A stretch of 64,000 bases of DNA from Haliotis asinina (lineage: Eukaryota > Mollusca > Gastropoda > Lepetellida > Haliotidae), in the NCBI RefSeq assembly GCF_037392515.1, contig NC_090281.1, positions 52,492,753 through 52,556,752 of the forward strand, given 5' to 3'. The notes below the pieces were generated by a model. It had not been told where the DNA came from. It saw only the letters and a list, made by a program, of their open reading frames with translations, and did no database searches. Below, piece after piece: positions 1 to 27,400 of the stretch; position 1 is the stretch's first letter, and each line of letters opens with the position of its first letter. A program made the translations under genes and the position numbers.

Positions 1-271
1 AGGCTAAAAGGAATTAGTGTTTCTGCTTTGCCCGGACCCGCTGTATCATATGCGCTGGTTAGATTTGCTGACAAACTTGTCCGTTGTCTGTTCATATGTC
101 TGTCCGTCAAAATACTGTATCTCCATTATCTCGGAAACTATTCAATGTACGGAGTTGAGATTTTGCACACTGCATCCCCTTGACTGTGTGTATCAATTCT
201 GTAAAAACCAAGTCATTCGGATTTCAACTTTTGTTTCTATGGCAACCCCGATAAACGAAAAACTTCAATCC

Positions 272-282
272 AAGATGGCGGC
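272..282 (+). promoter_or_regulatory. YY1-like motif recurring in the satellite
   Basis: AAGATGGCGGC matches the known YY1/REX1 consensus (AAnATGGCGGC). Within the same unit, AATATGGCGGC recurs at 606-616 and 1135-1145, and a variant, AATATGGCCGCC, begins at 953. The set repeats every 1853 bp through both blocks. The motif is seen directly; any binding is inference, and the spacing shows these are simply the conserved starts of the internal monomers. Confidence 0.35.
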
Positions 283-1755
283 CAAACGGTTAGAGATATC
301 GAATTTTGACCCCCGCCCAAAAATGTTCGGCTTCACATGACCAAGCCACATGCAAAATATGGAAGCGATTGGATTAATAGTAATGGAGTTACATGCTGTT
401 TTATGCCGTTTTAGACGCATATTAGATTTCTCCAATTTTCAAAGCCATATGACCGCCAAATGATGAAACTTTTGATATACATGTAAGAACAGGAAATGTT
501 AAGCATCTCATGCTGATGCACTATGCCGATTTTCACGTCATTCTGTGTAGAACTGTAGTAGATACAGCGTTTCAAATGTAGTGTCACCAGAATCTGCTGA
601 AATCCAATATGGCGGCCAAACAATTCACATTTTGACATGCATCAAAGAACAAAAAATGTTTAACACATCAAGTTACAGCACACTGCAAGATTTTAGCTGC
701 ATAGCTGTAATAGTAATGGTGCTGCGATTTTTTGAAAATACATCTGAGTTGAAAATAAACAACAAAAGTAAACATCTGAATATGCGTAACTAAGCAAGAT
801 ATCGCAATATACTTCCACTTCGTACATATATCAGGTACCTGTTCTATATCTGCAAAATCACAATGTTCTGCAGTAAATATTTTCAGAGTTATGGATTGCG
901 GAAAATGCGTACTTCACAAAATCTGCAAATTTCCTTTCAACAGCTTCAATCCAATATGGCCGCCGCATCACGTGACTTTTGATATATGACTAAGAACAAA
1001 AATTGTTCACCAGCCAAAAACAACTTCAGAACATGTATTTCAAGCGTTGTAGCTGCTAAGTTTGCCTTGCAAAAAAAATCAGAGAGAAGCCTGTTTACGT
1101 TTTTGTAGTCAACTTTTGAGCCGAAGTAGCATCCAATATGGCGGCCATCGAATCCACATTGTCGCATTTGACGATGTCGTTGCGTAGGGAGGTGCCTAGA
1201 GACAAAGTATGGCAAGTTTGAAAGCGGTAGCTGCTGTAGTTGTAGTGCAGCAGATTTTGGGAGCAAAGTAGTCAGAATTGGGCTGAAAAACAGCAGCAAA
1301 AACTTCAATCGCAAATAGCGGCCAAACGGTGCATTTTAGCGACTCGGCGCAACAGATGAAATTGTAGACATTTTGATTGCGCATCTGCTCAAGAAGTTTG
1401 GTAGTCATTGCAGCAGTAGTTTTGGAGATTATTGCATTTCAAATTGAAAATTTTGAATTAATTTTGATTTATCTGCCCTTTGCTATTGGACCCACAGCCT
1501 AGAGATTTTAATGGGGAATATCTACACCTCGGTGCGCATCTGCCTGATTTTTTTCAAGCGATTCTGTCCACTGGTGCTCTTTGTATCGCTGGCACAAAAT
1601 ACGGCGGAAAAATAAATAATAATAAAAACATCAGTAATTACAATAGGTCTTCTGCCTTATGGCAAGAAGCCCTAATAAGAAAAATCGTTATTTTTGAGTT
1701 TTTCGGGGTTTTGACACTTGCATTTGATAGCATGCCAAACAAACAATTTTTTTAG

Positions 1756-1786
1756 TCAAGGTCACCAAGGTCACGTGTCAAGGTCA
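1756..1786 (+). promoter_or_regulatory. Triplet of AAGGTCA half-sites plus E-box, once per satellite unit
   Basis: TCAAGGTCA (1756-1764), CCAAGGTCA (1765-1773) and TCAAGGTCA (1778-1786) stand in the same orientation, with CACGTG (1772-1777) overlapping the second site. TCAAGGTCA is the extended half-site known to be bound by monomeric nuclear receptors of the ERR and SF-1/FTZ-F1 groups. The first two AGGTCA cores are spaced 3 bases apart (DR3). The cluster recurs every 1853 bp: four times in block 1 and eight in block 2, since the last unit is cut before it. The sites are read directly; function is inference. Confidence 0.4.
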
Positions 1787-4700
1787 TTTAACTGGTTAGA
1801 CACAAGAAAAAGCACTTTTTTTCGCGAGCTAAGGCGACATTGTTATGGCATATAGGCTAAAAGGAATTAGTGTTTCTGCTTTGCCCGGACCCGCTGTATC
1901 ATATGCGCTGGTTAGATTTGCTGACAAACTTGTCCGTTGTCTGTTCATATGTCTGTCCGTCAAAATACTGTATCTCCATTATCTCGGAAACTATTCAATG
2001 TACGGAGTTGAGATTTTGCACACTGCATCCCCTTGACTGTGTGTATCAATTCTGTAAAAACCAAGTCATTCGGATTTCAACTTTTGTTTCTATGGCAACC
2101 CCGATAAACGAAAAACTTCAATCCAAGATGGCGGCCAAACGGTTAGAGATATCGAATTTTGACCCCCGCCCAAAAATGTTCGGCTTCACATGACCAAGCC
2201 ACATGCAAAATATGGAAGCGATTGGATTAATAGTAATGGAGTTACATGCTGTTTTATGCCGTTTTAGACGCATATTAGATTTCTCCAATTTTCAAAGCCA
2301 TATGACCGCCAAATGATGAAACTTTTGATATACATGTAAGAACAGGAAATGTTAAGCATCTCATGCTGATGCACTATGCCGATTTTCACGTCATTCTGTG
2401 TAGAACTGTAGTAGATACAGCGTTTCAAATGTAGTGTCACCAGAATCTGCTGAAATCCAATATGGCGGCCAAACAATTCACATTTTGACATGCATCAAAG
2501 AACAAAAAATGTTTAACACATCAAGTTACAGCACACTGCAAGATTTTAGCTGCATAGCTGTAATAGTAATGGTGCTGCGATTTTTTGAAAATACATCTGA
2601 GTTGAAAATAAACAACAAAAGTAAACATCTGAATATGCGTAACTAAGCAAGATATCGCAATATACTTCCACTTCGTACATATATCAGGTACCTGTTCTAT
2701 ATCTGCAAAATCACAATGTTCTGCAGTAAATATTTTCAGAGTTATGGATTGCGGAAAATGCGTACTTCACAAAATCTGCAAATTTCCTTTCAACAGCTTC
2801 AATCCAATATGGCCGCCGCATCACGTGACTTTTGATATATGACTAAGAACAAAAATTGTTCACCAGCCAAAAACAACTTCAGAACATGTATTTCAAGCGT
2901 TGTAGCTGCTAAGTTTGCCTTGCAAAAAAAATCAGAGAGAAGCCTGTTTACGTTTTTGTAGTCAACTTTTGAGCCGAAGTAGCATCCAATATGGCGGCCA
3001 TCGAATCCACATTGTCGCATTTGACGATGTCGTTGCGTAGGGAGGTGCCTAGAGACAAAGTATGGCAAGTTTGAAAGCGGTAGCTGCTGTAGTTGTAGTG
3101 CAGCAGATTTTGGGAGCAAAGTAGTCAGAATTGGGCTGAAAAACAGCAGCAAAAACTTCAATCGCAAATAGCGGCCAAACGGTGCATTTTAGCGACTCGG
3201 CGCAACAGATGAAATTGTAGACATTTTGATTGCGCATCTGCTCAAGAAGTTTGGTAGTCATTGCAGCAGTAGTTTTGGAGATTATTGCATTTCAAATTGA
3301 AAATTTTGAATTAATTTTGATTTATCTGCCCTTTGCTATTGGACCCACAGCCTAGAGATTTTAATGGGGAATATCTACACCTCGGTGCGCATCTGCCTGA
3401 TTTTTTTCAAGCGATTCTGTCCACTGGTGCTCTTTGTATCGCTGGCACAAAATACGGCGGAAAAATAAATAATAATAAAAACATCAGTAATTACAATAGG
3501 TCTTCTGCCTTATGGCAAGAAGCCCTAATAAGAAAAATCGTTATTTTTGAGTTTTTCGGGGTTTTGACACTTGCATTTGATAGCATGCCAAACAAACAAT
3601 TTTTTTAGTCAAGGTCACCAAGGTCACGTGTCAAGGTCATTTAACTGGTTAGACACAAGAAAAAGCACTTTTTTTCGCGAGCTAAGGCGACATTGTTATG
3701 GCATATAGGCTAAAAGGAATTAGTGTTTCTGCTTTGCCCGGACCCGCTGTATCATATGCGCTGGTTAGATTTGCTGACAAACTTGTCCGTTGTCTGTTCA
3801 TATGTCTGTCCGTCAAAATACTGTATCTCCATTATCTCGGAAACTATTCAATGTACGGAGTTGAGATTTTGCACACTGCATCCCCTTGACTGTGTGTATC
3901 AATTCTGTAAAAACCAAGTCATTCGGATTTCAACTTTTGTTTCTATGGCAACCCCGATAAACGAAAAACTTCAATCCAAGATGGCGGCCAAACGGTTAGA
4001 GATATCGAATTTTGACCCCCGCCCAAAAATGTTCGGCTTCACATGACCAAGCCACATGCAAAATATGGAAGCGATTGGATTAATAGTAATGGAGTTACAT
4101 GCTGTTTTATGCCGTTTTAGACGCATATTAGATTTCTCCAATTTTCAAAGCCATATGACCGCCAAATGATGAAACTTTTGATATACATGTAAGAACAGGA
4201 AATGTTAAGCATCTCATGCTGATGCACTATGCCGATTTTCACGTCATTCTGTGTAGAACTGTAGTAGATACAGCGTTTCAAATGTAGTGTCACCAGAATC
4301 TGCTGAAATCCAATATGGCGGCCAAACAATTCACATTTTGACATGCATCAAAGAACAAAAAATGTTTAACACATCAAGTTACAGCACACTGCAAGATTTT
4401 AGCTGCATAGCTGTAATAGTAATGGTGCTGCGATTTTTTGAAAATACATCTGAGTTGAAAATAAACAACAAAAGTAAACATCTGAATATGCGTAACTAAG
4501 CAAGATATCGCAATATACTTCCACTTCGTACATATATCAGGTACCTGTTCTATATCTGCAAAATCACAATGTTCTGCAGTAAATATTTTCAGAGTTATGG
4601 ATTGCGGAAAATGCGTACTTCACAAAATCTGCAAATTTCCTTTCAACAGCTTCAATCCAATATGGCCGCCGCATCACGTGACTTTTGATATATGACTAAG

Positions 4701-7373
4701 AACAAAAATTGTTCACCAGCCAAAAACAACTTCAGAACATGTATTTCAAGCGTTGTAGCTGCTAAGTTTGCCTTGCAAAAAAAATCAGAGAGAAGCCTGT
4801 TTACGTTTTTGTAGTCAACTTTTGAGCCGAAGTAGCATCCAATATGGCGGCCATCGAATCCACATTGTCGCATTTGACGATGTCGTTGCGTAGGGAGGTG
4901 CCTAGAGACAAAGTATGGCAAGTTTGAAAGCGGTAGCTGCTGTAGTTGTAGTGCAGCAGATTTTGGGAGCAAAGTAGTCAGAATTGGGCTGAAAAACAGC
5001 AGCAAAAACTTCAATCGCAAATAGCGGCCAAACGGTGCATTTTAGCGACTCGGCGCAACAGATGAAATTGTAGACATTTTGATTGCGCATCTGCTCAAGA
5101 AGTTTGGTAGTCATTGCAGCAGTAGTTTTGGAGATTATTGCATTTCAAATTGAAAATTTTGAATTAATTTTGATTTATCTGCCCTTTGCTATTGGACCCA
5201 CAGCCTAGAGATTTTAATGGGGAATATCTACACCTCGGTGCGCATCTGCCTGATTTTTTTCAAGCGATTCTGTCCACTGGTGCTCTTTGTATCGCTGGCA
5301 CAAAATACGGCGGAAAAATAAATAATAATAAAAACATCAGTAATTACAATAGGTCTTCTGCCTTATGGCAAGAAGCCCTAATAAGAAAAATCGTTATTTT
5401 TGAGTTTTTCGGGGTTTTGACACTTGCATTTGATAGCATGCCAAACAAACAATTTTTTTAGTCAAGGTCACCAAGGTCACGTGTCAAGGTCATTTAACTG
5501 GTTAGACACAAGAAAAAGCACTTTTTTTCGCGAGCTAAGGCGACATTGTTATGGCATATAGGCTAAAAGGAATTAGTGTTTCTGCTTTGCCCGGACCCGC
5601 TGTATCATATGCGCTGGTTAGATTTGCTGACAAACTTGTCCGTTGTCTGTTCATATGTCTGTCCGTCAAAATACTGTATCTCCATTATCTCGGAAACTAT
5701 TCAATGTACGGAGTTGAGATTTTGCACACTGCATCCCCTTGACTGTGTGTATCAATTCTGTAAAAACCAAGTCATTCGGATTTCAACTTTTGTTTCTATG
5801 GCAACCCCGATAAACGAAAAACTTCAATCCAAGATGGCGGCCAAACGGTTAGAGATATCGAATTTTGACCCCCGCCCAAAAATGTTCGGCTTCACATGAC
5901 CAAGCCACATGCAAAATATGGAAGCGATTGGATTAATAGTAATGGAGTTACATGCTGTTTTATGCCGTTTTAGACGCATATTAGATTTCTCCAATTTTCA
6001 AAGCCATATGACCGCCAAATGATGAAACTTTTGATATACATGTAAGAACAGGAAATGTTAAGCATCTCATGCTGATGCACTATGCCGATTTTCACGTCAT
6101 TCTGTGTAGAACTGTAGTAGATACAGCGTTTCAAATGTAGTGTCACCAGAATCTGCTGAAATCCAATATGGCGGCCAAACAATTCACATTTTGACATGCA
6201 TCAAAGAACAAAAAATGTTTAACACATCAAGTTACAGCACACTGCAAGATTTTAGCTGCATAGCTGTAATAGTAATGGTGCTGCGATTTTTTGAAAATAC
6301 ATCTGAGTTGAAAATAAACAACAAAAGTAAACATCTGAATATGCGTAACTAAGCAAGATATCGCAATATACTTCCACTTCGTACATATATCAGGTACCTG
6401 TTCTATATCTGCAAAATCACAATGTTCTGCAGTAAATATTTTCAGAGTTATGGATTGCGGAAAATGCGTACTTCACAAAATCTGCAAATTTCCTTTCAAC
6501 AGCTTCAATCCAATATGGCCGCCGCATCACGTGACTTTTGATATATGACTAAGAACAAAAATTGTTCACCAGCCAAAAACAACTTCAGAACATGTATTTC
6601 AAGCGTTGTAGCTGCTAAGTTTGCCTTGCAAAAAAAATCAGAGAGAAGCCTGTTTACGTTTTTGTAGTCAACTTTTGAGCCGAAGTAGCATCCAATATGG
6701 CGGCCATCGAATCCACATTGTCGCATTTGACGATGTCGTTGCGTAGGGAGGTGCCTAGAGACAAAGTATGGCAAGTTTGAAAGCGGTAGCTGCTGTAGTT
6801 GTAGTGCAGCAGATTTTGGGAGCAAAGTAGTCAGAATTGGGCTGAAAAACAGCAGCAAAAACTTCAATCGCAAATAGCGGCCAAACGGTGCATTTTAGCG
6901 ACTCGGCGCAACAGATGAAATTGTAGACATTTTGATTGCGCATCTGCTCAAGAAGTTTGGTAGTCATTGCAGCAGTAGTTTTGGAGATTATTGCATTTCA
7001 AATTGAAAATTTTGAATTAATTTTGATTTATCTGCCCTTTGCTATTGGACCCACAGCCTAGAGATTTTAATGGGGAATATCTACACCTCGGTGCGCATCT
7101 GCCTGATTTTTTTCAAGCGATTCTGTCCACTGGTGCTCTTTGTATCGCTGGCACAAAATACGGCGGAAAAATAAATAATAATAAAAACATCAGTAATTAC
7201 AATAGGTCTTCTGCCTTATGGCAAGAAGCCCTAATAAGAAAAATCGTTATTTTTGAGTTTTTCGGGGTTTTGACACTTGCATTTGATAGCATGCCAAACA
7301 AACAATTTTTTTAGTCAAGGTCACCAAGGTCACGTGTCAAGGTCATTTAACTGGTTAGACACAAGAAAAAGCA

Positions 7374-9924
7374 TATCAATCAAACAAACATAATGATTGT
7401 CGCTTTCAATTCTTATATGCTTTGAAACAGATGCTACTTGTAAATTAGCATGAAAAGAGAAAAAAACTTAGTGGTTGTCCATTCAGTGATCAAAGCATGC
7501 ACACTTCACAACAATCTTTTCAAAATGTCTAAAACATAAAAGCCTAAGCTGAATGTGATTCACGGTATGTTACTTAAATATATATATAATAAATGTTGTA
7601 TTAAGTAAATCTATATCAATGAACATAACAAACATGTCCAGTGATCTAACTTCAATAACATACAGGAAAAAACACCATTGATCTTGTTGACATAACTCGT
7701 ACTTGAATTGTTCCTGAGCTTGTGATTAATCTTGGAAATTTCACACTACCAGCACAAACGTAGTACTAGTCTAGATGGATAGACAACGCCATTCAGTGTG
7801 TTCACTTTCGTGGTTCAATTGATGTAAATTTGACTTATAATATTCATAACATCATACCAGTACCAGCTGAATGCTCAATACCATAGGACGATAGCACGTT
7901 ACTATAGTCCAAATGATACTGGTTGTGATTGTGTATGAATTTAAAAACAAGTTAACAGCAGCTATACCTGCTTCAGTGACAATATTTCGCTAGATCATGA
8001 GCACAAGATACATCAGGTTGTAGATATGCTAAAGCACACAGAATATTTTAAATGACTATTAAAACCTGAACAAAATGGCTATTAATCTTTCTATGGTTGA
8101 TGTGGCGTAAGTTATGGTTGTGTATGTTTGGAATGTAGCTGTGCTGTTAAAACCTGCTTTGTGCTTTAAACAGGAAACCATAACTATCAAAACAAGACAG
8201 GTATATGGAACAGAAGGCAAAATACCGCGGTTCCACTTATATCTCGGTTTATTGTTTCACAGACGAGGAATTTCTAGAATGAACGCATATATGCTACTCC
8301 ATTGTACACTAAAAAGTCTATGCATTAAGAGGTAACAACATCAGTCCAAACAAGGTAAGATTTGGTTGGAGAAGTACTGCCAGACCTAGTTAATTTGCGT
8401 ATTTCAGCGCCTTCTAGCACGTCGACCTGGCGCAACATTTTATTTTTGCCATTTTCAAAAGGATGAATGAAAAATCTATGAGACCTGTAAAAAATGTTAT
8501 TTTACTTCTGTTACGATTCATACAATTAAACAATCACAGTACATAGATAACATGCATATACTTTAATACATTTTTAGACCAGCCACTGAGTTGTACAAAT
8601 TGAGGGATTTTCAAAAGTATATAATCTTTTGCGAGACGCATGGAATTGTTCTCTACATCTGTTGTTCTTTAAAGTGGAAAATAATTGTAGTTTAGGTTCG
8701 CAAGCTTAGAAGCACCATCTTCGTAAGTTAACTTGTCAGAAGTTTAATAAACGCTTATATATCATAAATTTCATAGTGTGACACGCTACACAGTGTAAAT
8801 TTGCTAACATCTGTGAACTCGTTAATTAAAGCATGGGCTGGAACTCAGTGTGAAAACAATGCCATTTGTGATTAATTACTTTAAATGACACCAGCAAGTC
8901 AGTCTATCGTATCGGTGCTTGGCGAGACGCTCCCGATTTGTCACCTCCCGGCTTGGAATGAATTTCACGTGCATTTCATGCTCATGCAGAGACAATGAGG
9001 GTGAAAAGGAGAGAGATGGAAGCAAACTGATTTTCAATAAGTCTTGATCTTGAAATCCAATCAAATGCATGTAAAATTATTTATAATATTAATAGAATAC
9101 GGAAGCTCGACCGAAAATATAGTATAAGTAATCATAAGTTACATTCATGGTTTCCTCGCTGCATCGGTAAATATCCACACTGTTTTAAGCAAGGAGACTC
9201 ATCGGAGGCCCCACGCCAAGAACAGAAGCGATATTGACCGATACACTTCGGACTTTGCTTGCTGATGAATTTACTTGTATGAATCGACGTATGCACTACA
9301 GAACACACAAAAACCTTTAACTTTTTCGCATTTTCAGTTAGTTTTCAGATATATTCATAGGCCTATAAAAGGCGTTTCAACTGATTTCAACTGAAGCTCA
9401 GATCAAATGTATCTGCTAAGCGTTAGTACTTTTGACATACACAAAGGCAGGTTATACTTATATACACAGAACTCATACATATCGCCAACTTTGAACGAAA
9501 CGACTGAACTTAGAGACAATAGTGAGTGCCGGTGTGCGGTCCTGTGAGACACATGTTTGAAGGAGCGGCCGTATTCGACCTCCCACTTTCCTTCAGATTT
9601 TCGTGCTCTTTTCTAGGGTTAAACGTTAAATGCTGTACTAACTTTTAGCACGTTCGGCCGCGTATTCATGGGCCGTCGGTGATAAAAAGAAGTGCCTATT
9701 TCCTTAATAAGCAGAAACTTGGGGACTTTGATGGCTAGTATTGTTAACGGTCCTGTGTACATAGAAGCAACCACTTTCGATAGATATTTAAAGCGGTCTA
9801 AGCAGAAATATTAGTAAATTTGCTTCGCACTCTTTCCTTTCATTAGGGGGCACGTCTCAAACGTTGTGTCTTCGTTTTAGCTAATGCAGTGTGTATCGCC
9901 GTCAAAACGGAGCATTTTAACAAT
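7374..9924. other. Non-satellite DNA between the two array blocks
   Basis: About 2.55 kb of AT-rich DNA with no similarity to the 1853-bp unit that I can see. I find no convincing exon, no terminal inverted repeat and no SINE or LINE match. The flanking array ends do not fit a clean insertion: block 1 stops at unit position 1814 while block 2 starts at unit position 1173, so 642 bp of the unit is present on both sides. Confidence 0.8.
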
Positions 9925-12900
9925 GATGTCGTTGCGTAGGGAGGTGCCTAGAGACAAAGTATGGCAAGTTTGAAAGCGGTAGCTGCTGTAGTTGTAGTGC
10001 AGCAGATTTTGGGAGCAAAGTAGTCAGAATTGGGCTGAAAAACAGCAGCAAAAACTTCAATCGCAAATAGCGGCCAAACGGTGCATTTTAGCGACTCGGC
10101 GCAACAGATGAAATTGTAGACATTTTGATTGCGCATCTGCTCAAGAAGTTTGGTAGTCATTGCAGCAGTAGTTTTGGAGATTATTGCATTTCAAATTGAA
10201 AATTTTGAATTAATTTTGATTTATCTGCCCTTTGCTATTGGACCCACAGCCTAGAGATTTTAATGGGGAATATCTACACCTCGGTGCGCATCTGCCTGAT
10301 TTTTTTCAAGCGATTCTGTCCACTGGTGCTCTTTGTATCGCTGGCACAAAATACGGCGGAAAAATAAATAATAATAAAAACATCAGTAATTACAATAGGT
10401 CTTCTGCCTTATGGCAAGAAGCCCTAATAAGAAAAATCGTTATTTTTGAGTTTTTCGGGGTTTTGACACTTGCATTTGATAGCATGCCAAACAAACAATT
10501 TTTTTAGTCAAGGTCACCAAGGTCACGTGTCAAGGTCATTTAACTGGTTAGACACAAGAAAAAGCACTTTTTTTCGCGAGCTAAGGCGACATTGTTATGG
10601 CATATAGGCTAAAAGGAATTAGTGTTTCTGCTTTGCCCGGACCCGCTGTATCATATGCGCTGGTTAGATTTGCTGACAAACTTGTCCGTTGTCTGTTCAT
10701 ATGTCTGTCCGTCAAAATACTGTATCTCCATTATCTCGGAAACTATTCAATGTACGGAGTTGAGATTTTGCACACTGCATCCCCTTGACTGTGTGTATCA
10801 ATTCTGTAAAAACCAAGTCATTCGGATTTCAACTTTTGTTTCTATGGCAACCCCGATAAACGAAAAACTTCAATCCAAGATGGCGGCCAAACGGTTAGAG
10901 ATATCGAATTTTGACCCCCGCCCAAAAATGTTCGGCTTCACATGACCAAGCCACATGCAAAATATGGAAGCGATTGGATTAATAGTAATGGAGTTACATG
11001 CTGTTTTATGCCGTTTTAGACGCATATTAGATTTCTCCAATTTTCAAAGCCATATGACCGCCAAATGATGAAACTTTTGATATACATGTAAGAACAGGAA
11101 ATGTTAAGCATCTCATGCTGATGCACTATGCCGATTTTCACGTCATTCTGTGTAGAACTGTAGTAGATACAGCGTTTCAAATGTAGTGTCACCAGAATCT
11201 GCTGAAATCCAATATGGCGGCCAAACAATTCACATTTTGACATGCATCAAAGAACAAAAAATGTTTAACACATCAAGTTACAGCACACTGCAAGATTTTA
11301 GCTGCATAGCTGTAATAGTAATGGTGCTGCGATTTTTTGAAAATACATCTGAGTTGAAAATAAACAACAAAAGTAAACATCTGAATATGCGTAACTAAGC
11401 AAGATATCGCAATATACTTCCACTTCGTACATATATCAGGTACCTGTTCTATATCTGCAAAATCACAATGTTCTGCAGTAAATATTTTCAGAGTTATGGA
11501 TTGCGGAAAATGCGTACTTCACAAAATCTGCAAATTTCCTTTCAACAGCTTCAATCCAATATGGCCGCCGCATCACGTGACTTTTGATATATGACTAAGA
11601 ACAAAAATTGTTCACCAGCCAAAAACAACTTCAGAACATGTATTTCAAGCGTTGTAGCTGCTAAGTTTGCCTTGCAAAAAAAATCAGAGAGAAGCCTGTT
11701 TACGTTTTTGTAGTCAACTTTTGAGCCGAAGTAGCATCCAATATGGCGGCCATCGAATCCACATTGTCGCATTTGACGATGTCGTTGCGTAGGGAGGTGC
11801 CTAGAGACAAAGTATGGCAAGTTTGAAAGCGGTAGCTGCTGTAGTTGTAGTGCAGCAGATTTTGGGAGCAAAGTAGTCAGAATTGGGCTGAAAAACAGCA
11901 GCAAAAACTTCAATCGCAAATAGCGGCCAAACGGTGCATTTTAGCGACTCGGCGCAACAGATGAAATTGTAGACATTTTGATTGCGCATCTGCTCAAGAA
12001 GTTTGGTAGTCATTGCAGCAGTAGTTTTGGAGATTATTGCATTTCAAATTGAAAATTTTGAATTAATTTTGATTTATCTGCCCTTTGCTATTGGACCCAC
12101 AGCCTAGAGATTTTAATGGGGAATATCTACACCTCGGTGCGCATCTGCCTGATTTTTTTCAAGCGATTCTGTCCACTGGTGCTCTTTGTATCGCTGGCAC
12201 AAAATACGGCGGAAAAATAAATAATAATAAAAACATCAGTAATTACAATAGGTCTTCTGCCTTATGGCAAGAAGCCCTAATAAGAAAAATCGTTATTTTT
12301 GAGTTTTTCGGGGTTTTGACACTTGCATTTGATAGCATGCCAAACAAACAATTTTTTTAGTCAAGGTCACCAAGGTCACGTGTCAAGGTCATTTAACTGG
12401 TTAGACACAAGAAAAAGCACTTTTTTTCGCGAGCTAAGGCGACATTGTTATGGCATATAGGCTAAAAGGAATTAGTGTTTCTGCTTTGCCCGGACCCGCT
12501 GTATCATATGCGCTGGTTAGATTTGCTGACAAACTTGTCCGTTGTCTGTTCATATGTCTGTCCGTCAAAATACTGTATCTCCATTATCTCGGAAACTATT
12601 CAATGTACGGAGTTGAGATTTTGCACACTGCATCCCCTTGACTGTGTGTATCAATTCTGTAAAAACCAAGTCATTCGGATTTCAACTTTTGTTTCTATGG
12701 CAACCCCGATAAACGAAAAACTTCAATCCAAGATGGCGGCCAAACGGTTAGAGATATCGAATTTTGACCCCCGCCCAAAAATGTTCGGCTTCACATGACC
12801 AAGCCACATGCAAAATATGGAAGCGATTGGATTAATAGTAATGGAGTTACATGCTGTTTTATGCCGTTTTAGACGCATATTAGATTTCTCCAATTTTCAA

Positions 12901-15900: not shown

Positions 15901-18900
15901 TGGCACAAAATACGGCGGAAAAATAAATAATAATAAAAACATCAGTAATTACAATAGGTCTTCTGCCTTATGGCAAGAAGCCCTAATAAGAAAAATCGTT
16001 ATTTTTGAGTTTTTCGGGGTTTTGACACTTGCATTTGATAGCATGCCAAACAAACAATTTTTTTAGTCAAGGTCACCAAGGTCACGTGTCAAGGTCATTT
16101 AACTGGTTAGACACAAGAAAAAGCACTTTTTTTCGCGAGCTAAGGCGACATTGTTATGGCATATAGGCTAAAAGGAATTAGTGTTTCTGCTTTGCCCGGA
16201 CCCGCTGTATCATATGCGCTGGTTAGATTTGCTGACAAACTTGTCCGTTGTCTGTTCATATGTCTGTCCGTCAAAATACTGTATCTCCATTATCTCGGAA
16301 ACTATTCAATGTACGGAGTTGAGATTTTGCACACTGCATCCCCTTGACTGTGTGTATCAATTCTGTAAAAACCAAGTCATTCGGATTTCAACTTTTGTTT
16401 CTATGGCAACCCCGATAAACGAAAAACTTCAATCCAAGATGGCGGCCAAACGGTTAGAGATATCGAATTTTGACCCCCGCCCAAAAATGTTCGGCTTCAC
16501 ATGACCAAGCCACATGCAAAATATGGAAGCGATTGGATTAATAGTAATGGAGTTACATGCTGTTTTATGCCGTTTTAGACGCATATTAGATTTCTCCAAT
16601 TTTCAAAGCCATATGACCGCCAAATGATGAAACTTTTGATATACATGTAAGAACAGGAAATGTTAAGCATCTCATGCTGATGCACTATGCCGATTTTCAC
16701 GTCATTCTGTGTAGAACTGTAGTAGATACAGCGTTTCAAATGTAGTGTCACCAGAATCTGCTGAAATCCAATATGGCGGCCAAACAATTCACATTTTGAC
16801 ATGCATCAAAGAACAAAAAATGTTTAACACATCAAGTTACAGCACACTGCAAGATTTTAGCTGCATAGCTGTAATAGTAATGGTGCTGCGATTTTTTGAA
16901 AATACATCTGAGTTGAAAATAAACAACAAAAGTAAACATCTGAATATGCGTAACTAAGCAAGATATCGCAATATACTTCCACTTCGTACATATATCAGGT
17001 ACCTGTTCTATATCTGCAAAATCACAATGTTCTGCAGTAAATATTTTCAGAGTTATGGATTGCGGAAAATGCGTACTTCACAAAATCTGCAAATTTCCTT
17101 TCAACAGCTTCAATCCAATATGGCCGCCGCATCACGTGACTTTTGATATATGACTAAGAACAAAAATTGTTCACCAGCCAAAAACAACTTCAGAACATGT
17201 ATTTCAAGCGTTGTAGCTGCTAAGTTTGCCTTGCAAAAAAAATCAGAGAGAAGCCTGTTTACGTTTTTGTAGTCAACTTTTGAGCCGAAGTAGCATCCAA
17301 TATGGCGGCCATCGAATCCACATTGTCGCATTTGACGATGTCGTTGCGTAGGGAGGTGCCTAGAGACAAAGTATGGCAAGTTTGAAAGCGGTAGCTGCTG
17401 TAGTTGTAGTGCAGCAGATTTTGGGAGCAAAGTAGTCAGAATTGGGCTGAAAAACAGCAGCAAAAACTTCAATCGCAAATAGCGGCCAAACGGTGCATTT
17501 TAGCGACTCGGCGCAACAGATGAAATTGTAGACATTTTGATTGCGCATCTGCTCAAGAAGTTTGGTAGTCATTGCAGCAGTAGTTTTGGAGATTATTGCA
17601 TTTCAAATTGAAAATTTTGAATTAATTTTGATTTATCTGCCCTTTGCTATTGGACCCACAGCCTAGAGATTTTAATGGGGAATATCTACACCTCGGTGCG
17701 CATCTGCCTGATTTTTTTCAAGCGATTCTGTCCACTGGTGCTCTTTGTATCGCTGGCACAAAATACGGCGGAAAAATAAATAATAATAAAAACATCAGTA
17801 ATTACAATAGGTCTTCTGCCTTATGGCAAGAAGCCCTAATAAGAAAAATCGTTATTTTTGAGTTTTTCGGGGTTTTGACACTTGCATTTGATAGCATGCC
17901 AAACAAACAATTTTTTTAGTCAAGGTCACCAAGGTCACGTGTCAAGGTCATTTAACTGGTTAGACACAAGAAAAAGCACTTTTTTTCGCGAGCTAAGGCG
18001 ACATTGTTATGGCATATAGGCTAAAAGGAATTAGTGTTTCTGCTTTGCCCGGACCCGCTGTATCATATGCGCTGGTTAGATTTGCTGACAAACTTGTCCG
18101 TTGTCTGTTCATATGTCTGTCCGTCAAAATACTGTATCTCCATTATCTCGGAAACTATTCAATGTACGGAGTTGAGATTTTGCACACTGCATCCCCTTGA
18201 CTGTGTGTATCAATTCTGTAAAAACCAAGTCATTCGGATTTCAACTTTTGTTTCTATGGCAACCCCGATAAACGAAAAACTTCAATCCAAGATGGCGGCC
18301 AAACGGTTAGAGATATCGAATTTTGACCCCCGCCCAAAAATGTTCGGCTTCACATGACCAAGCCACATGCAAAATATGGAAGCGATTGGATTAATAGTAA
18401 TGGAGTTACATGCTGTTTTATGCCGTTTTAGACGCATATTAGATTTCTCCAATTTTCAAAGCCATATGACCGCCAAATGATGAAACTTTTGATATACATG
18501 TAAGAACAGGAAATGTTAAGCATCTCATGCTGATGCACTATGCCGATTTTCACGTCATTCTGTGTAGAACTGTAGTAGATACAGCGTTTCAAATGTAGTG
18601 TCACCAGAATCTGCTGAAATCCAATATGGCGGCCAAACAATTCACATTTTGACATGCATCAAAGAACAAAAAATGTTTAACACATCAAGTTACAGCACAC
18701 TGCAAGATTTTAGCTGCATAGCTGTAATAGTAATGGTGCTGCGATTTTTTGAAAATACATCTGAGTTGAAAATAAACAACAAAAGTAAACATCTGAATAT
18801 GCGTAACTAAGCAAGATATCGCAATATACTTCCACTTCGTACATATATCAGGTACCTGTTCTATATCTGCAAAATCACAATGTTCTGCAGTAAATATTTT

Positions 18901-21900
18901 CAGAGTTATGGATTGCGGAAAATGCGTACTTCACAAAATCTGCAAATTTCCTTTCAACAGCTTCAATCCAATATGGCCGCCGCATCACGTGACTTTTGAT
19001 ATATGACTAAGAACAAAAATTGTTCACCAGCCAAAAACAACTTCAGAACATGTATTTCAAGCGTTGTAGCTGCTAAGTTTGCCTTGCAAAAAAAATCAGA
19101 GAGAAGCCTGTTTACGTTTTTGTAGTCAACTTTTGAGCCGAAGTAGCATCCAATATGGCGGCCATCGAATCCACATTGTCGCATTTGACGATGTCGTTGC
19201 GTAGGGAGGTGCCTAGAGACAAAGTATGGCAAGTTTGAAAGCGGTAGCTGCTGTAGTTGTAGTGCAGCAGATTTTGGGAGCAAAGTAGTCAGAATTGGGC
19301 TGAAAAACAGCAGCAAAAACTTCAATCGCAAATAGCGGCCAAACGGTGCATTTTAGCGACTCGGCGCAACAGATGAAATTGTAGACATTTTGATTGCGCA
19401 TCTGCTCAAGAAGTTTGGTAGTCATTGCAGCAGTAGTTTTGGAGATTATTGCATTTCAAATTGAAAATTTTGAATTAATTTTGATTTATCTGCCCTTTGC
19501 TATTGGACCCACAGCCTAGAGATTTTAATGGGGAATATCTACACCTCGGTGCGCATCTGCCTGATTTTTTTCAAGCGATTCTGTCCACTGGTGCTCTTTG
19601 TATCGCTGGCACAAAATACGGCGGAAAAATAAATAATAATAAAAACATCAGTAATTACAATAGGTCTTCTGCCTTATGGCAAGAAGCCCTAATAAGAAAA
19701 ATCGTTATTTTTGAGTTTTTCGGGGTTTTGACACTTGCATTTGATAGCATGCCAAACAAACAATTTTTTTAGTCAAGGTCACCAAGGTCACGTGTCAAGG
19801 TCATTTAACTGGTTAGACACAAGAAAAAGCACTTTTTTTCGCGAGCTAAGGCGACATTGTTATGGCATATAGGCTAAAAGGAATTAGTGTTTCTGCTTTG
19901 CCCGGACCCGCTGTATCATATGCGCTGGTTAGATTTGCTGACAAACTTGTCCGTTGTCTGTTCATATGTCTGTCCGTCAAAATACTGTATCTCCATTATC
20001 TCGGAAACTATTCAATGTACGGAGTTGAGATTTTGCACACTGCATCCCCTTGACTGTGTGTATCAATTCTGTAAAAACCAAGTCATTCGGATTTCAACTT
20101 TTGTTTCTATGGCAACCCCGATAAACGAAAAACTTCAATCCAAGATGGCGGCCAAACGGTTAGAGATATCGAATTTTGACCCCCGCCCAAAAATGTTCGG
20201 CTTCACATGACCAAGCCACATGCAAAATATGGAAGCGATTGGATTAATAGTAATGGAGTTACATGCTGTTTTATGCCGTTTTAGACGCATATTAGATTTC
20301 TCCAATTTTCAAAGCCATATGACCGCCAAATGATGAAACTTTTGATATACATGTAAGAACAGGAAATGTTAAGCATCTCATGCTGATGCACTATGCCGAT
20401 TTTCACGTCATTCTGTGTAGAACTGTAGTAGATACAGCGTTTCAAATGTAGTGTCACCAGAATCTGCTGAAATCCAATATGGCGGCCAAACAATTCACAT
20501 TTTGACATGCATCAAAGAACAAAAAATGTTTAACACATCAAGTTACAGCACACTGCAAGATTTTAGCTGCATAGCTGTAATAGTAATGGTGCTGCGATTT
20601 TTTGAAAATACATCTGAGTTGAAAATAAACAACAAAAGTAAACATCTGAATATGCGTAACTAAGCAAGATATCGCAATATACTTCCACTTCGTACATATA
20701 TCAGGTACCTGTTCTATATCTGCAAAATCACAATGTTCTGCAGTAAATATTTTCAGAGTTATGGATTGCGGAAAATGCGTACTTCACAAAATCTGCAAAT
20801 TTCCTTTCAACAGCTTCAATCCAATATGGCCGCCGCATCACGTGACTTTTGATATATGACTAAGAACAAAAATTGTTCACCAGCCAAAAACAACTTCAGA
20901 ACATGTATTTCAAGCGTTGTAGCTGCTAAGTTTGCCTTGCAAAAAAAATCAGAGAGAAGCCTGTTTACGTTTTTGTAGTCAACTTTTGAGCCGAAGTAGC
21001 ATCCAATATGGCGGCCATCGAATCCACATTGTCGCATTTGACGATGTCGTTGCGTAGGGAGGTGCCTAGAGACAAAGTATGGCAAGTTTGAAAGCGGTAG
21101 CTGCTGTAGTTGTAGTGCAGCAGATTTTGGGAGCAAAGTAGTCAGAATTGGGCTGAAAAACAGCAGCAAAAACTTCAATCGCAAATAGCGGCCAAACGGT
21201 GCATTTTAGCGACTCGGCGCAACAGATGAAATTGTAGACATTTTGATTGCGCATCTGCTCAAGAAGTTTGGTAGTCATTGCAGCAGTAGTTTTGGAGATT
21301 ATTGCATTTCAAATTGAAAATTTTGAATTAATTTTGATTTATCTGCCCTTTGCTATTGGACCCACAGCCTAGAGATTTTAATGGGGAATATCTACACCTC
21401 GGTGCGCATCTGCCTGATTTTTTTCAAGCGATTCTGTCCACTGGTGCTCTTTGTATCGCTGGCACAAAATACGGCGGAAAAATAAATAATAATAAAAACA
21501 TCAGTAATTACAATAGGTCTTCTGCCTTATGGCAAGAAGCCCTAATAAGAAAAATCGTTATTTTTGAGTTTTTCGGGGTTTTGACACTTGCATTTGATAG
21601 CATGCCAAACAAACAATTTTTTTAGTCAAGGTCACCAAGGTCACGTGTCAAGGTCATTTAACTGGTTAGACACAAGAAAAAGCACTTTTTTTCGCGAGCT
21701 AAGGCGACATTGTTATGGCATATAGGCTAAAAGGAATTAGTGTTTCTGCTTTGCCCGGACCCGCTGTATCATATGCGCTGGTTAGATTTGCTGACAAACT
21801 TGTCCGTTGTCTGTTCATATGTCTGTCCGTCAAAATACTGTATCTCCATTATCTCGGAAACTATTCAATGTACGGAGTTGAGATTTTGCACACTGCATCC

Positions 21901-24900
21901 CCTTGACTGTGTGTATCAATTCTGTAAAAACCAAGTCATTCGGATTTCAACTTTTGTTTCTATGGCAACCCCGATAAACGAAAAACTTCAATCCAAGATG
22001 GCGGCCAAACGGTTAGAGATATCGAATTTTGACCCCCGCCCAAAAATGTTCGGCTTCACATGACCAAGCCACATGCAAAATATGGAAGCGATTGGATTAA
22101 TAGTAATGGAGTTACATGCTGTTTTATGCCGTTTTAGACGCATATTAGATTTCTCCAATTTTCAAAGCCATATGACCGCCAAATGATGAAACTTTTGATA
22201 TACATGTAAGAACAGGAAATGTTAAGCATCTCATGCTGATGCACTATGCCGATTTTCACGTCATTCTGTGTAGAACTGTAGTAGATACAGCGTTTCAAAT
22301 GTAGTGTCACCAGAATCTGCTGAAATCCAATATGGCGGCCAAACAATTCACATTTTGACATGCATCAAAGAACAAAAAATGTTTAACACATCAAGTTACA
22401 GCACACTGCAAGATTTTAGCTGCATAGCTGTAATAGTAATGGTGCTGCGATTTTTTGAAAATACATCTGAGTTGAAAATAAACAACAAAAGTAAACATCT
22501 GAATATGCGTAACTAAGCAAGATATCGCAATATACTTCCACTTCGTACATATATCAGGTACCTGTTCTATATCTGCAAAATCACAATGTTCTGCAGTAAA
22601 TATTTTCAGAGTTATGGATTGCGGAAAATGCGTACTTCACAAAATCTGCAAATTTCCTTTCAACAGCTTCAATCCAATATGGCCGCCGCATCACGTGACT
22701 TTTGATATATGACTAAGAACAAAAATTGTTCACCAGCCAAAAACAACTTCAGAACATGTATTTCAAGCGTTGTAGCTGCTAAGTTTGCCTTGCAAAAAAA
22801 ATCAGAGAGAAGCCTGTTTACGTTTTTGTAGTCAACTTTTGAGCCGAAGTAGCATCCAATATGGCGGCCATCGAATCCACATTGTCGCATTTGACGATGT
22901 CGTTGCGTAGGGAGGTGCCTAGAGACAAAGTATGGCAAGTTTGAAAGCGGTAGCTGCTGTAGTTGTAGTGCAGCAGATTTTGGGAGCAAAGTAGTCAGAA
23001 TTGGGCTGAAAAACAGCAGCAAAAACTTCAATCGCAAATAGCGGCCAAACGGTGCATTTTAGCGACTCGGCGCAACAGATGAAATTGTAGACATTTTGAT
23101 TGCGCATCTGCTCAAGAAGTTTGGTAGTCATTGCAGCAGTAGTTTTGGAGATTATTGCATTTCAAATTGAAAATTTTGAATTAATTTTGATTTATCTGCC
23201 CTTTGCTATTGGACCCACAGCCTAGAGATTTTAATGGGGAATATCTACACCTCGGTGCGCATCTGCCTGATTTTTTTCAAGCGATTCTGTCCACTGGTGC
23301 TCTTTGTATCGCTGGCACAAAATACGGCGGAAAAATAAATAATAATAAAAACATCAGTAATTACAATAGGTCTTCTGCCTTATGGCAAGAAGCCCTAATA
23401 AGAAAAATCGTTATTTTTGAGTTTTTCGGGGTTTTGACACTTGCATTTGATAGCATGCCAAACAAACAATTTTTTTAGTCAAGGTCACCAAGGTCACGTG
23501 TCAAGGTCATTTAACTGGTTAGACACAAGAAAAAGCACTTTTTTTCGCGAGCTAAGGCGACATTGTTATGGCATATAGGCTAAAAGGAATTAGTGTTTCT
23601 GCTTTGCCCGGACCCGCTGTATCATATGCGCTGGTTAGATTTGCTGACAAACTTGTCCGTTGTCTGTTCATATGTCTGTCCGTCAAAATACTGTATCTCC
23701 ATTATCTCGGAAACTATTCAATGTACGGAGTTGAGATTTTGCACACTGCATCCCCTTGACTGTGTGTATCAATTCTGTAAAAACCAAGTCATTCGGATTT
23801 CAACTTTTGTTTCTATGGCAACCCCGATAAACGAAAAACTTCAATCCAAGATGGCGGCCAAACGGTTAGAGATATCGAATTTTGACCCCCGCCCAAAAAT
23901 GTTCGGCTTCACATGACCAAGCCACATGCAAAATATGGAAGCGATTGGATTAATAGTAATGGAGTTACATGCTGTTTTATGCCGTTTTAGACGCATATTA
24001 GATTTCTCCAATTTTCAAAGCCATATGACCGCCAAATGATGAAACTTTTGATATACATGTAAGAACAGGAAATGTTAAGCATCTCATGCTGATGCACTAT
24101 GCCGATTTTCACGTCATTCTGTGTAGAACTGTAGTAGATACAGCGTTTCAAATGTAGTGTCACCAGAATCTGCTGAAATCCAATATGGCGGCCAAACAAT
24201 TCACATTTTGACATGCATCAAAGAACAAAAAATGTTTAACACATCAAGTTACAGCACACTGCAAGATTTTAGCTGCATAGCTGTAATAGTAATGGTGCTG
24301 CGATTTTTTGAAAATACATCTGAGTTGAAAATAAACAACAAAAGTAAACATCTGAATATGCGTAACTAAGCAAGATATCGCAATATACTTCCACTTCGTA
24401 CATATATCAGGTACCTGTTCTATATCTGCAAAATCACAATGTTCTGCAGTAAATATTTTCAGAGTTATGGATTGCGGAAAATGCGTACTTCACAAAATCT
24501 GCAAATTTCCTTTCAACAGCTTCAATCCAATATGGCCGCCGCATCACGTGACTTTTGATATATGACTAAGAACAAAAATTGTTCACCAGCCAAAAACAAC
24601 TTCAGAACATGTATTTCAAGCGTTGTAGCTGCTAAGTTTGCCTTGCAAAAAAAATCAGAGAGAAGCCTGTTTACGTTTTTGTAGTCAACTTTTGAGCCGA
24701 AGTAGCATCCAATATGGCGGCCATCGAATCCACATTGTCGCATTTGACGATGTCGTTGCGTAGGGAGGTGCCTAGAGACAAAGTATGGCAAGTTTGAAAG
24801 CGGTAGCTGCTGTAGTTGTAGTGCAGCAGATTTTGGGAGCAAAGTAGTCAGAATTGGGCTGAAAAACAGCAGCAAAAACTTCAATCGCAAATAGCGGCCA

Positions 24901-25251
24901 AACGGTGCATTTTAGCGACTCGGCGCAACAGATGAAATTGTAGACATTTTGATTGCGCATCTGCTCAAGAAGTTTGGTAGTCATTGCAGCAGTAGTTTTG
25001 GAGATTATTGCATTTCAAATTGAAAATTTTGAATTAATTTTGATTTATCTGCCCTTTGCTATTGGACCCACAGCCTAGAGATTTTAATGGGGAATATCTA
25101 CACCTCGGTGCGCATCTGCCTGATTTTTTTCAAGCGATTCTGTCCACTGGTGCTCTTTGTATCGCTGGCACAAAATACGGCGGAAAAATAAATAATAATA
25201 AAAACATCAGTAATTACAATAGGTCTTCTGCCTTATGGCAAGAAGCCCTAA
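9925..25251. repeat. 1853-bp satellite array, block 2 (about 8.3 units)
   Basis: The same 1853-bp unit as block 1, same orientation. Landmarks recur at 10622, 12475, 14328, 16181, 18034, 19887, 21740 and 23593. It starts at unit position 1173 (within the sixth internal monomer) and ends at 25251, soon after AGAAGCCCTAA, about 45 bases short of the half-site triplet. Translations of the shared frames are identical to block 1, so the two blocks have not diverged despite the spacer. This points to recent amplification or efficient homogenisation across both blocks; an assembly effect is not excluded. Confidence 0.97.
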
Positions 25252-25379: not shown

Positions 25380-27400
25380 TTAAAGGGGCACTGATGCGGA
25401 GCAATTTCCGTGGACTGGTGTAAACTTTTGTTATTGTTTTTCTCCCGTGAGTACCCGGATGATATCCCAGCATTCGTGACTGGTTCGTGACCTCTGCTGC
25501 GCATTCCGTAAGCGCAGCTGATCGTTTAATTATAGACAGATCAACTTAAGTGAAGTCATTTTTAGTTCATAACAAATGTATTAGGAAAACAAATGAAACA
25601 CTTTGAAGGGTAATCATCTGCCAGTGGTAGAAATGGTAAAAAACTATTAGGACGGAAAAATAACGAAGCCAATGTACGTCTCTATATTTTGTCTCATAAC
25701 CCTAATTAGTTTATTGTCATATTTGTATGATTCTGAAAATTAATAAAAGAACACACGATCTGCTTATACTCATAGTAAATTTCTAACATAACAGCAACAT
25801 TTATACATTGTATAGATTGCCAAAGGGGATCCTATTTCACACATATACGCGATCTAGTGTGTGTTTTCTGTCATATAGATTCTGCTGAATGCTACAACAA
25901 ATAAATTAAAACAAAATGCAAATAATGAATGTCAAACAGACTAATTTTATAGCAACAATGTCTGGCTACTACCTTGTTCAGGAATGTATCCATCAATATC
26001 CACGTAAAAGAAATCGTATTCCATTCATCTGCAGCTGGTAAATAATCCTGCTCTATGTCGCGTGTCTTACAACTGTCTAGTTTGCGAAAAAGTAACACAT
26101 CGTTTCACGTCTTTCGTTGGTGAAAACCAGATAAATCTCTCATTGGTCTCCCAAGATAGCACACCTGGCAAACTAATTGCATGATGTCCACTATTCTAAG
26201 TAATTTAGTTAACCAATAATGAGCAATCAATCAACCAACGCAAGGGTGGTTAATTCTTTGAAGGGATGATGTTGTTTTTGCACTCACTCTTTACGACAGG
26301 GTGTAGTCATCTACACACACTGCCTTTTGACAAATCCGTCAGAAGATAAAAGTAATTAATCAATCAGTGTGTTATCGGTTAATCCTTTGATCGATGTTTG
26401 TTTTTGTAACTCAGCTGATAAACCCTCTTGCATCACTTACATGCACATATTACATAACATACAATACATTTGCCATTACAGACCTTAGTTTATAATGTTG
26501 AGTATTTACTCCAGACAGGAGAAATGCCAAATGGGAACCTTTGTTGAGTAACCGAAGTGGTGTTACTACTAATTATACCTGTTATAAATTCATTAATTGA
26601 CCATCCAGAGAAATAATGACAAATAACACGTGCAGGTGTACACCATCAAACGCGAGTTACAGCAAGGAAGATGTAATCTCTGTGTCGCATGCAGCCTGAC
26701 AACACTTATGGGCCGAAACTGTTTTGAGTATACCAACGGAATTTCGTTACATAAGGAATACACACAGGCATTTGCTGTGTACTTGGGTAAATAGGTGAAA
26801 TAAGGGTTTTTTTACGTAAGAAAATTTTCAGATTTCTCTACCAAAGGCAAAGTCATCGTTTTTTGTTTACGAATTCAAATAAATCAACTGTGTGTTTTTA
26901 TTATCATAAATAATAAACCATTGTAGCTACCATAGCTACCAAAATTTCCGTATGATATTTGCTATCACAGCTGAACCAACACTCAAAACTACCTATATAT
27001 ATAAAGCTTTACAACCTTCCGTACTGAAACAAATGGCTTGCTACCTGCCTGTAGACATCATATTTTCATGTAACATGATTAAATATCGAGGTTAAAAACA
27101 CAGAAATAGGATCAAATTGGATCAGTAACTATTCCATCCAAGCATCCGAAAAGAACTACACTGCTGGGATATTTGGATACGATCAGACAAGGAATACCAT
27201 GGATATTTTTAAACAAATGGCATATGATGGGCATCCGACCTCCTGACTGTTTAGGTGAAGAAATTCTGCTAATATGGACAGGAGCCCAGTTCCTTTGTCC
27301 GTCACGGTCGAAGGAGCGGGCGCTGACCAATTTGCGGTTTGGTTTCGTAATTCGACCGTTGGCGAGAAACATTATTCGCTCCGCATCAGTGCCCCTTTAA
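25380..27400. mobile_element. Non-autonomous DNA transposon with TTAA sites (piggyBac-like ends)
   Basis: AGGGGCACTGATGCGGAG at 25384-25401 is matched by its exact reverse complement at 27379-27396. Both copies are directly bounded outside by TTAA (25380-25383 and 27397-27400). An exact TTAA duplication is known for piggyBac and also for Kolobok elements, so the superfamily is tentative. The interior is about 2.0 kb, AT-rich, with no transposase frame I can recognise, so the element would depend on an enzyme made elsewhere. Inside, two imperfect direct repeats of a GGTTAAT-CTTTGA segment lie about 130 bp apart (around 26220-26300 and 26350-26420). The perfect ends suggest a fairly young copy. 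Confidence 0.75.

What the first reader, a model, noticed from the sequence alone, without database searches (positions are those of the whole stretch)
1..25251. A 1853-bp satellite with about 12 near-identical units next to genic DNA
Landmarks repeat at exactly 1853 bp in both blocks and every shared frame translates identically, so the units show almost no divergence even across a 2.55-kb interruption. This implies very recent amplification (rolling-circle or replication-based) or strong gene conversion. A unit this long made of small monomers is a higher-order repeat, a form typical of centromeric or heterochromatic satellites. Here it ends within 9 kb of a working gene.
Basis: partly seen in the sequence, partly recalled or inferred. 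Interest (0 to 1): 0.7.

Follow-up and report, generated by a model that had tools for sequence, protein, structure and literature searches.

The report
Rolling-circle transposon array posing as satellite
What looks like a centromere-type satellite beside ordinary genes is a very large jumping element of the rolling-circle kind whose front part was copied dozens of times in a row, and it shows a likely way in which satellite DNA is born.

Summary
The 1853-bp repeat is real: the 12.2 units in 1-25251 show no difference, with boundaries at 7373, 9925 and 25251. It is not a centromeric higher-order repeat. Flanks from the same genome show one 93-kb structure. Read on the minus strand it is a non-autonomous Helentron (HINE): each unit starts with the element's 5' end (11-bp subTIR, complementary repeat, TTA run) and carries degenerate ~174-bp central repeats; only the last copy keeps the 3' end. 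5':3' ends are 35:1 in the outer element and 14:1 in a nested inverted one. The 2.55-kb 'interruption' is the interior of the full-length element. Genome-wide there are 287 such 5' ends and 79 3' ends. Six of six arrays read end in one 3'-complete copy. Units are nearly always identical within an array, 94-99.9% alike between arrays. Best explanation: each array was copied from one template, probably by rolling-circle replication past a lost terminator, then inserted. The rolling-circle step is inferred; tandem Helitron arrays are known, chiefly from plants.

The parts
1..1675 (-). Part of a unit that starts (element sense) at 1675 and continues to the left of the window; it contains a complete 5' end at its right side
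   Evidence: Identical to the unit over -177..1675
1676..7234 (-). Three complete 1853-bp units (each LF + central repeats + tail, no 3' end)
   Evidence: Identical strings
7235..10427 (-). One 3193-bp variant unit: 503 bp unit start (10427-9925), full-length-type interior (9924-7374), 139-bp unit tail (7373-7235)
7374..9924 (-). The 'interruption': interior of the full-length element; again at -67736..-65186 (99.96%) and inverted at -25198..-22620 (93.4%); related interiors in elements on C1, C4, C5, C9, C15 and C16
10428..25251 (-). Eight complete 1853-bp units; 25251 is the outermost 5' end of the whole element
25239..25251 (-). 5' terminus: TT then 11-bp subTIR AGGGCTTCTTG (25249-25239), inverted match of the 3' subTIR at about -67.9 kb
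   Evidence: 0 of 2000 shuffles of the two end pieces reach 11 bp
25221..25230 (-). Repeat complementary to the subTIR; with it forms the strongest hairpin of the unit
   Evidence: rank 1 of 1853 phases; DNA fold z -3.15, 0 of 200 shuffles
25184..25205 (-). T-rich/TTA run of the 5' end (short here; about eight TTA in the nested 1868-bp type); self-insertions fall in or near this run
   Evidence: Tandem Repeats Finder at score 30 does not call it in this unit
255..1466 (.). Central degenerate ~174-bp repeats of the unit (six recognisable copies, a gap at 766-938)
   Evidence: leave-one-out profiles, 0 of 200 shuffles for each of six

Best explanation
It is a tandemised non-autonomous Helentron (HINE), read on the minus strand. 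SHOWN: (1) one structure runs from a 5' end (LF) at 25251 to one 3' end (RF) at about -67930, with 35 LFs and one RF in its own sense; a nested inverted 25.6-kb element inside it has 14 LFs and one RF. (2) LF and RF share an 11-bp inverted subTIR; LF also has the complementary repeat and a TTA run, RF ends in a short palindrome and T's. (3) The nested element sits in the LF of an outer unit with nothing lost and no target duplication beyond bases shared by both ends. (4) In the six arrays read, many LF-units are followed by one 3'-complete element. (5) Units are nearly all identical within an array and differ between arrays. INFERRED: a circular intermediate lost its 3' terminator, perhaps by recombination in the central repeats, where unit and full-length interior part company; rolling-circle replication ran round it many times; the concatemer, closed by one terminator-bearing copy, was inserted at TT by a Helentron-type Rep/helicase/endonuclease. 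Insertion of elements into each other's T-rich LF then builds composites.
For: Whole map and ends. Hairpin at the array end ranks 1 of 1853 phases. subTIR: 0 of 2000 shuffles; 10 of 5000 random pairs from the same 284 kb, about a third of which is this array. Single full-length elements with the same ends on C1 (3337 bp) and C5 (2908 bp). Arrays on C4, C9, C15, C16 end in one RF-bearing copy. 17 of 19 loci grouped from the 100 printed LF rows have an RF downstream in the right sense within 60 kb. Identical units within arrays: 31 of 32 (C2 outer; the broken unit left out), 8 of 9 and 3 of 3 (C2 nested), 7 of 7 (C16), 5 of 5 (C9), 5 of 6 (C4); between arrays 93.97-99.89%. Array-specific periods 1851, 1853, 1855, 1858, 1861. 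A second clean insertion into a TTA run on C15. The genome encodes Helitron-type Rep (15 matches), one in a 2290-aa open frame whose C-terminal part matches Pif1 2B and Exo_endo_phos.
Against: No circle was seen; polymerisation could have followed insertion. The unit carries a 1350-bp stretch that the full-length copies lack, so it is not just a 3'-truncated copy of them. Two unit types (1868 and 1853 bp) sit in one nested element, so more than one template or event is needed there. The base after the array end at 25251 is T on the element's strand, as expected, but no empty allele was available to prove the outer insertion site. The autonomous partner was not tied to these ends: no LF, RF or subTIR in the 2475 bp of C150 read. 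C13:37.97 Mb and C63 show no RF within 60 kb.
Confidence: 0.8

Rival explanations
1. The element is a HINE, but the array grew after insertion, by unequal crossing-over or replication slippage from a dimer, with conversion keeping units equal.
For: Identical units are also what recent unequal exchange gives. The outer array contains one unit with a 23-bp deletion and a 3193-bp variant, and a 17.9-kb stretch (8 units, 503 bp, interior) occurs twice, which looks like rearrangement inside the array.
Against: It does not explain why six of six arrays read keep exactly one 3'-complete copy at the far end, nor why small arrays on C9 and C4 are already uniform.
Confidence: 0.14
2. A classical satellite or higher-order repeat of centromeric or heterochromatic type.
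For: Long unit, near-perfect homogeneity, degenerate monomers of near-nucleosome length in part of the unit; the locus lies near the middle of a 102-Mb contig.
Against: Transposon ends in every unit, single-copy relatives, many small arrays on several chromosomes, only part of the unit monomeric, sulfatase, receptor, ninjurin and cyclin A genes on either side.
Confidence: 0.02
3. An assembly artefact: one or a few units multiplied by the assembler or by consensus polishing.
For: No reads could be inspected, and runs of identical units reach about 16.7 kb between landmarks, near the limit of many long reads.
Against: Landmarks (odd unit, variant unit, nested element, RF) are spread through the structure. 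The C9 array is about 12.6 kb in all, within one long read, and shows the same pattern; periods and substitutions are array-specific.
Confidence: 0.03

Closest known systems
HINE / DINE-1 non-autonomous Helentrons, incl. Cg_HINE of the Pacific oyster (PMC4067079, passages; PMC7492417, outline, passages and its Cg_HINE section)
   Same: subTIRs of 11 bp or more, complementary repeat and microsatellite in the 5' module, central ~160-170-bp-class repeats, 3' palindrome, TT target, no TSD, no coding frame
   Different: There the central repeats are the tandem part of one element; here the element's own 5' module is inside the repeated unit. PMC7492417 does mention tandem whole elements with inner copies truncated at the 3' end.
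Tandem arrays of truncated Helitrons in plant centromeres (Xiong 2016; not held, known here only through passages of PMC12628747 and PMC5148889)
   Same: Many 5' ends, single 3' end, several to hundreds of repeats, rolling-circle origin proposed
   Different: Described as partially decayed plant Helitrons; here Helentron-type ends in an animal, nearly no decay, array-specific templates, nested composites
Fusarium Helitron2 elements with several 5' termini (PMC5148889, passages)
   Same: Multiple 5' termini with one 3' terminus; self-insertion; composite from leftmost 5' to first 3' end proposed
   Different: The duplicated 5' piece there is typically under 200 bp; here 1.85 kb and up to 35 times
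Oyster satellites related to Helitrons (PMC8268682, abstract and section 2.3; PMC11136912, passages)
   Same: Satellite-like arrays scattered over chromosomes and tied to Helitron ends
   Different: In those species the satellite monomer corresponded to the central repeats, not to the 5' end plus repeats. CgiSat48, a 2056-bp monomer with Helitron boxes at both ends, is mostly single and never more than three in a row.

Membership tests
HINE (non-autonomous Helentron) | At least 11 bp of subterminal inverted repeat shared by 5' and 3' ends | tested here: met
   AGGGCTTCTTG / CAAGAAGCCCT; 0 of 2000 shuffles, 10 of 5000 random pairs from array-rich DNA. On the single unit the test failed, because it has no 3' end
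HINE (non-autonomous Helentron) | 5' inverted repeat complementary to the subTIR | tested here: met
   hairpin at the 5' end, rank 1 of 1853 phases
HINE (non-autonomous Helentron) | Microsatellite in the 5' module | tested here: met
   TTA run read in the sequence, long in the nested 1868-bp type; short in the window's unit, where Tandem Repeats Finder calls nothing
HINE (non-autonomous Helentron) | Central tandem repeats (present in many, not all) | tested here: met
   six degenerate ~174-bp monomers, 0 of 200 shuffles each
HINE (non-autonomous Helentron) | Short palindrome near the 3' end | tested here: met
   GCTGCTCGCAGC, 5-bp arms, in the last 20 nt; weak fold, -4.5 kcal/mol with RNA parameters
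HINE (non-autonomous Helentron) | Insertion at TT, no target site duplication | tested here: met
   two insertions into known units (C2 nested, C15) lose nothing; T follows the RF in the C1, C4, C5, C9, C16 and C2 copies. No empty allele for the outer element
HINE (non-autonomous Helentron) | No coding capacity | tested here: met
   9 open frames of 70 aa or more (7 unit, 2 interior): none over a Pfam cut-off
HINE (non-autonomous Helentron) | Autonomous Helentron with the same ends in the genome | tested here: inconclusive
   Rep/helicase/endonuclease-type frame on C150, its ends not tied to LF/RF; 2475 bp read
Canonical Helitron (5'-TC...hairpin...CTRR-3', A^T target) | 5' TC and 3' hairpin plus CTRR | tested here: not met
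   the CTAA-hairpin at 25251 is the complement of a Helentron 5' end; no TC start and the next plus-strand base is A
Higher-order repeat satellite | Unit made wholly of monomers of one satellite | tested here: not met
   four of the other stretches of the unit show no monomer

The most novel reading that the evidence does not exclude
Whole multi-unit arrays are themselves mobile: giant Helentrons of roughly 12 to 68 kb that carry their satellite with them, start at the leftmost 5' end, stop at the first 3' end and tend to land in each other's 5' ends, so that satellite arrays are born, moved and stacked by transposition. The nested 25.6-kb composite (5' end and three units of one type; nine units and the 3' end of another) occupies a single clean site.
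Probability: 0.45. Interest if true: 0.78.

Novelty: new variant of a known kind. Interest (0 to 1): 0.62.

Why it matters
How a satellite starts is usually inferred from old, scrambled arrays. Here the starting state seems preserved: units almost without differences, sharp ends, one terminator copy per array, and sister arrays at other sites made from slightly different templates. That makes a rolling-circle origin of satellites testable with long reads and circle sequencing, and it shows that a long-unit satellite beside genes can be one transposon insertion.

Tried and rejected
Rfam and tRNA searches: nothing in the window (1-10600 at E up to 1), so no known ribozyme or RNA-gene array was found. 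Canonical Helitron ending in hairpin + CTAA at 25251: my first reading, dropped when the flanks showed subTIR and palindrome at the other end. A GTC microsatellite in the unit: 5 of 500 shuffles reach it, Tandem Repeats Finder finds none; not used. Interruption as an inserted transposon: no long inverted repeats, two open frames of 70-74 aa without Pfam match, no flanking duplication of a target site. Copies elsewhere: plasmids none; viral contigs 4 matches to a 17-mer, about what chance would give by my own estimate, and 0 to the hairpin pattern. Literature by '1853 bp' or by sequence strings: nothing on this element (listings only). Xiong 2016 is not held. The interior as a DNA query of the own genome was asked once, unanswered, and not repeated.
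Full report
OBSERVATION. Shifting the window by 1853 bases gives exact identity over 1-5520 and 9925-23398, so block 1 is 1-7373, block 2 is 9925-25251 and the gap is 2551 bp. The 11 complete units in the window are the same string. Block 1 continues left of the window.

UNIT ANATOMY. The unit is not simply a chain of monomers. Leave-one-out profiles support six degenerate ~174-bp monomers at unit positions 258, 432, 592, 939, 1121 and 1298 (0 of 200 shuffles each); nothing was found at 84-257, 766-938, 1467-1640 or 1641-1853. Nine open frames of 70 aa or more (seven of the unit, two of the interruption) gave no Pfam family over its cut-off. Rfam gave nothing. The array's right end, 25251, lies one base past the foot of the strongest hairpin of the unit, rank 1 of 1853 phases (DNA fold z -3.15). 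The other two block ends in the window do not coincide with a hairpin. This suggested a transposon terminus at 25251.

THE WHOLE STRUCTURE. The genome that holds the window (1.143 Gb, 159 contigs, unnamed; window at C2:52492753-52556752) let me read 200 kb to the left and 20 kb to the right. In window coordinates (negative = left) the structure runs from about -67930 to 25251, 93.2 kb. Right to left, which is the element's sense, it holds: 8 units; the 3193-bp variant 10427-7235; 16 units, one of them with a 23-bp deletion and one substitution; one unit broken by a nested inverted element of 25.6 kb; 8 units; then 503 bp of unit start, 2551 bp of interior and a 196-bp end. The nested element reads the other way: three 1868-bp units, 61 bp of a further 5' end, nine 1853-bp units, 489 bp, interior (93.4% to the outer one) and its own copy of the 3' end (96.4%). 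In all, 35 5' ends and one 3' end have the outer sense, 14 and one the nested sense. The 'interruption' is thus the interior of the full-length element. A 17.9-kb stretch (8 units, 503 bp, interior) occurs at both ends of the outer element, which points to rearrangement inside it.

WHAT THE ELEMENT IS. On the minus strand the 5' end reads TT-AGGGCTTCTTG-CC-ATAA-GG-CAGAAGACCT, followed by a TTA run; the 3' end reads CAAGAAGCCCT-CATC-GCTGCTCGCAGC-TATATTT. An 11-bp inverted match between the ends was reached by 0 of 2000 shuffles of the end pieces; in 5000 random pairs from the same 284 kb it was reached by 10, but about a third of that DNA is this array. Such subTIRs, the 5' complementary repeat, a 5' microsatellite, central repeats and a 3' palindrome define HINEs (PMC4067079, passages; PMC7492417, outline, passages and its section on Cg_HINE). 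The nested element broke an outer unit's 5' end at TGTAA^TTACTG with nothing lost. On C15 another array sits in the TTA run of a different unit, both halves of which are there. My earlier test of the single unit for subTIRs failed, because the unit lacks the 3' end. The microsatellite is short in the window's unit; Tandem Repeats Finder does not call it.

GENOME-WIDE. The 36-nt 5' end has 287 matches at up to 3 mismatches (reversed-pattern control 0; 100 rows printed). The 33-nt 3' end has 79 (control 0). From the printed 5'-end rows I grouped 19 loci; 17 have a 3' end downstream in the right sense within 60 kb, C13:37.97 Mb and C63 do not. The elements on C1 (3337 bp) and C5 (2908 bp) are single: one 5' end, one 3' end, no tandem units in the stretches fetched. 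I read six arrays (C2 outer, C2 nested, C4, C9, C16, and both ends of the one on C15); all six finish in one 3'-complete copy. Other arrays (C2:67.64 Mb, C8, C11, C63, and more on C15) were not read. Identical units within arrays: 31 of 32 in the outer one (the broken unit left out), 8 of 9 and 3 of 3 in the nested one, 7 of 7 on C16, 5 of 5 on C9, 5 of 6 on C4. Representative units of seven array types are 93.97-99.89% alike, the highest value being C15 against C16, whose 2326-bp terminal copies are identical. Periods differ: 1851, 1853, 1855, 1858, 1861. With 0 differences in the 57,443 bp of the 31 identical units, mean divergence from their source is below about 5e-5.

MECHANISM. Identical within, different between, sharp ends and one terminator copy fit amplification of one template before or at insertion. 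A bat Helitron makes circles (PMC4778049, passages). For plant arrays with many 5' and one 3' end, loss of the terminator through internal repeats followed by run-on rolling-circle replication has been proposed (Xiong 2016 as told in PMC12628747, passages). Here unit and full-length interior part company within the central repeats: the nested interior begins with 17 bp of monomer (0 of 1000 shuffles), while the outer copy's match is weak (26 of 1000). Composites running from the leftmost 5' end to the first 3' end were proposed for Fusarium Helitron2 elements (PMC5148889, passages); the nested element, with one unit type at its 5' end and another at its 3' end, looks like one. The genome has 15 matches to Helitron_like_N. 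One lies in a 2290-aa open frame; its last 441 aa, read from L039 in the same frame, match Pif1 2B and Exo_endo_phos, the Helentron arrangement, but I could not tie it to these ends. Rolling-circle polymerisation is inferred; growth after insertion is the main rival. The unit also carries 1350 bp that the full-length copies lack, and where these came from is open.

KNOWN OR NEW. In six oyster species the Helitron-related satellites corresponded to the central repeats (PMC11136912, passages; PMC8268682, abstract and section 2.3). Here the repeat contains the element's own 5' end, as in the plant arrays. Tandem Helitrons with 3'-truncated inner copies are known (PMC7492417, passage), and tandem insertions are reported for bat, Drosophila, rice and maize (PMC5148889, passage). 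I rate this a new variant of a known kind. That this element itself is not in print rests only.

LIMITS. No reads were seen. My samples of arrays were chosen from the printed rows, not at random.

Noticed in passing
window 25380-27400: Two perfect 23-bp terminal inverted repeats (TTAAAGGGGCACTGATGCGGAGC) enclose about 2 kb, with TTAA at both outer ends: looks like a non-autonomous DNA transposon.
   Followed up: no
window 258-1330 and each further unit: Several central repeats carry ATCCAA(G/T)ATGGCGGCC, which resembles the YY1 binding consensus, and the tail has three AGGTCA half-sites (about 1751-1788); both likenesses are recalled, not tested.
   Followed up: no
window 46078-46976: 47-bp minisatellite, 19 copies, 90% matches, with long open frames on the minus strand.
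   Followed up: no
window about 32.9, 40.6, 48.3, 51.7 and 63.2 kb: A dispersed ~200-bp repeat in both orientations, 74-83% alike.
   Followed up: no
window 43945-43971: Perfect 11-bp-arm hairpin TCTAGGTCATC-GATGACCTAGA; possibly the end of another mobile element.
   Followed up: no
L025 to L020, about 143-186 kb left of the window: Tandem cluster of sulfatase-type genes in 7-9 kb segmental repeats up to 98.7% alike; one copy confirmed by Pfam.
   Followed up: partly
L037, L038, L033 (C15, C16): Repeated self-insertions break other units' 5' ends 50-56 bp from their start, at different points of the T-rich run, like the 61-bp break in the nested C2 element: a self-targeting hot spot.
   Followed up: partly
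G000 contig C150, PF14214 match at 11074-11667; L039: Open frame of 2290 aa with Helitron_like_N, Pif1 2B and Exo_endo_phos matches, on a 16474-bp contig: a candidate autonomous Helentron.
   Followed up: partly
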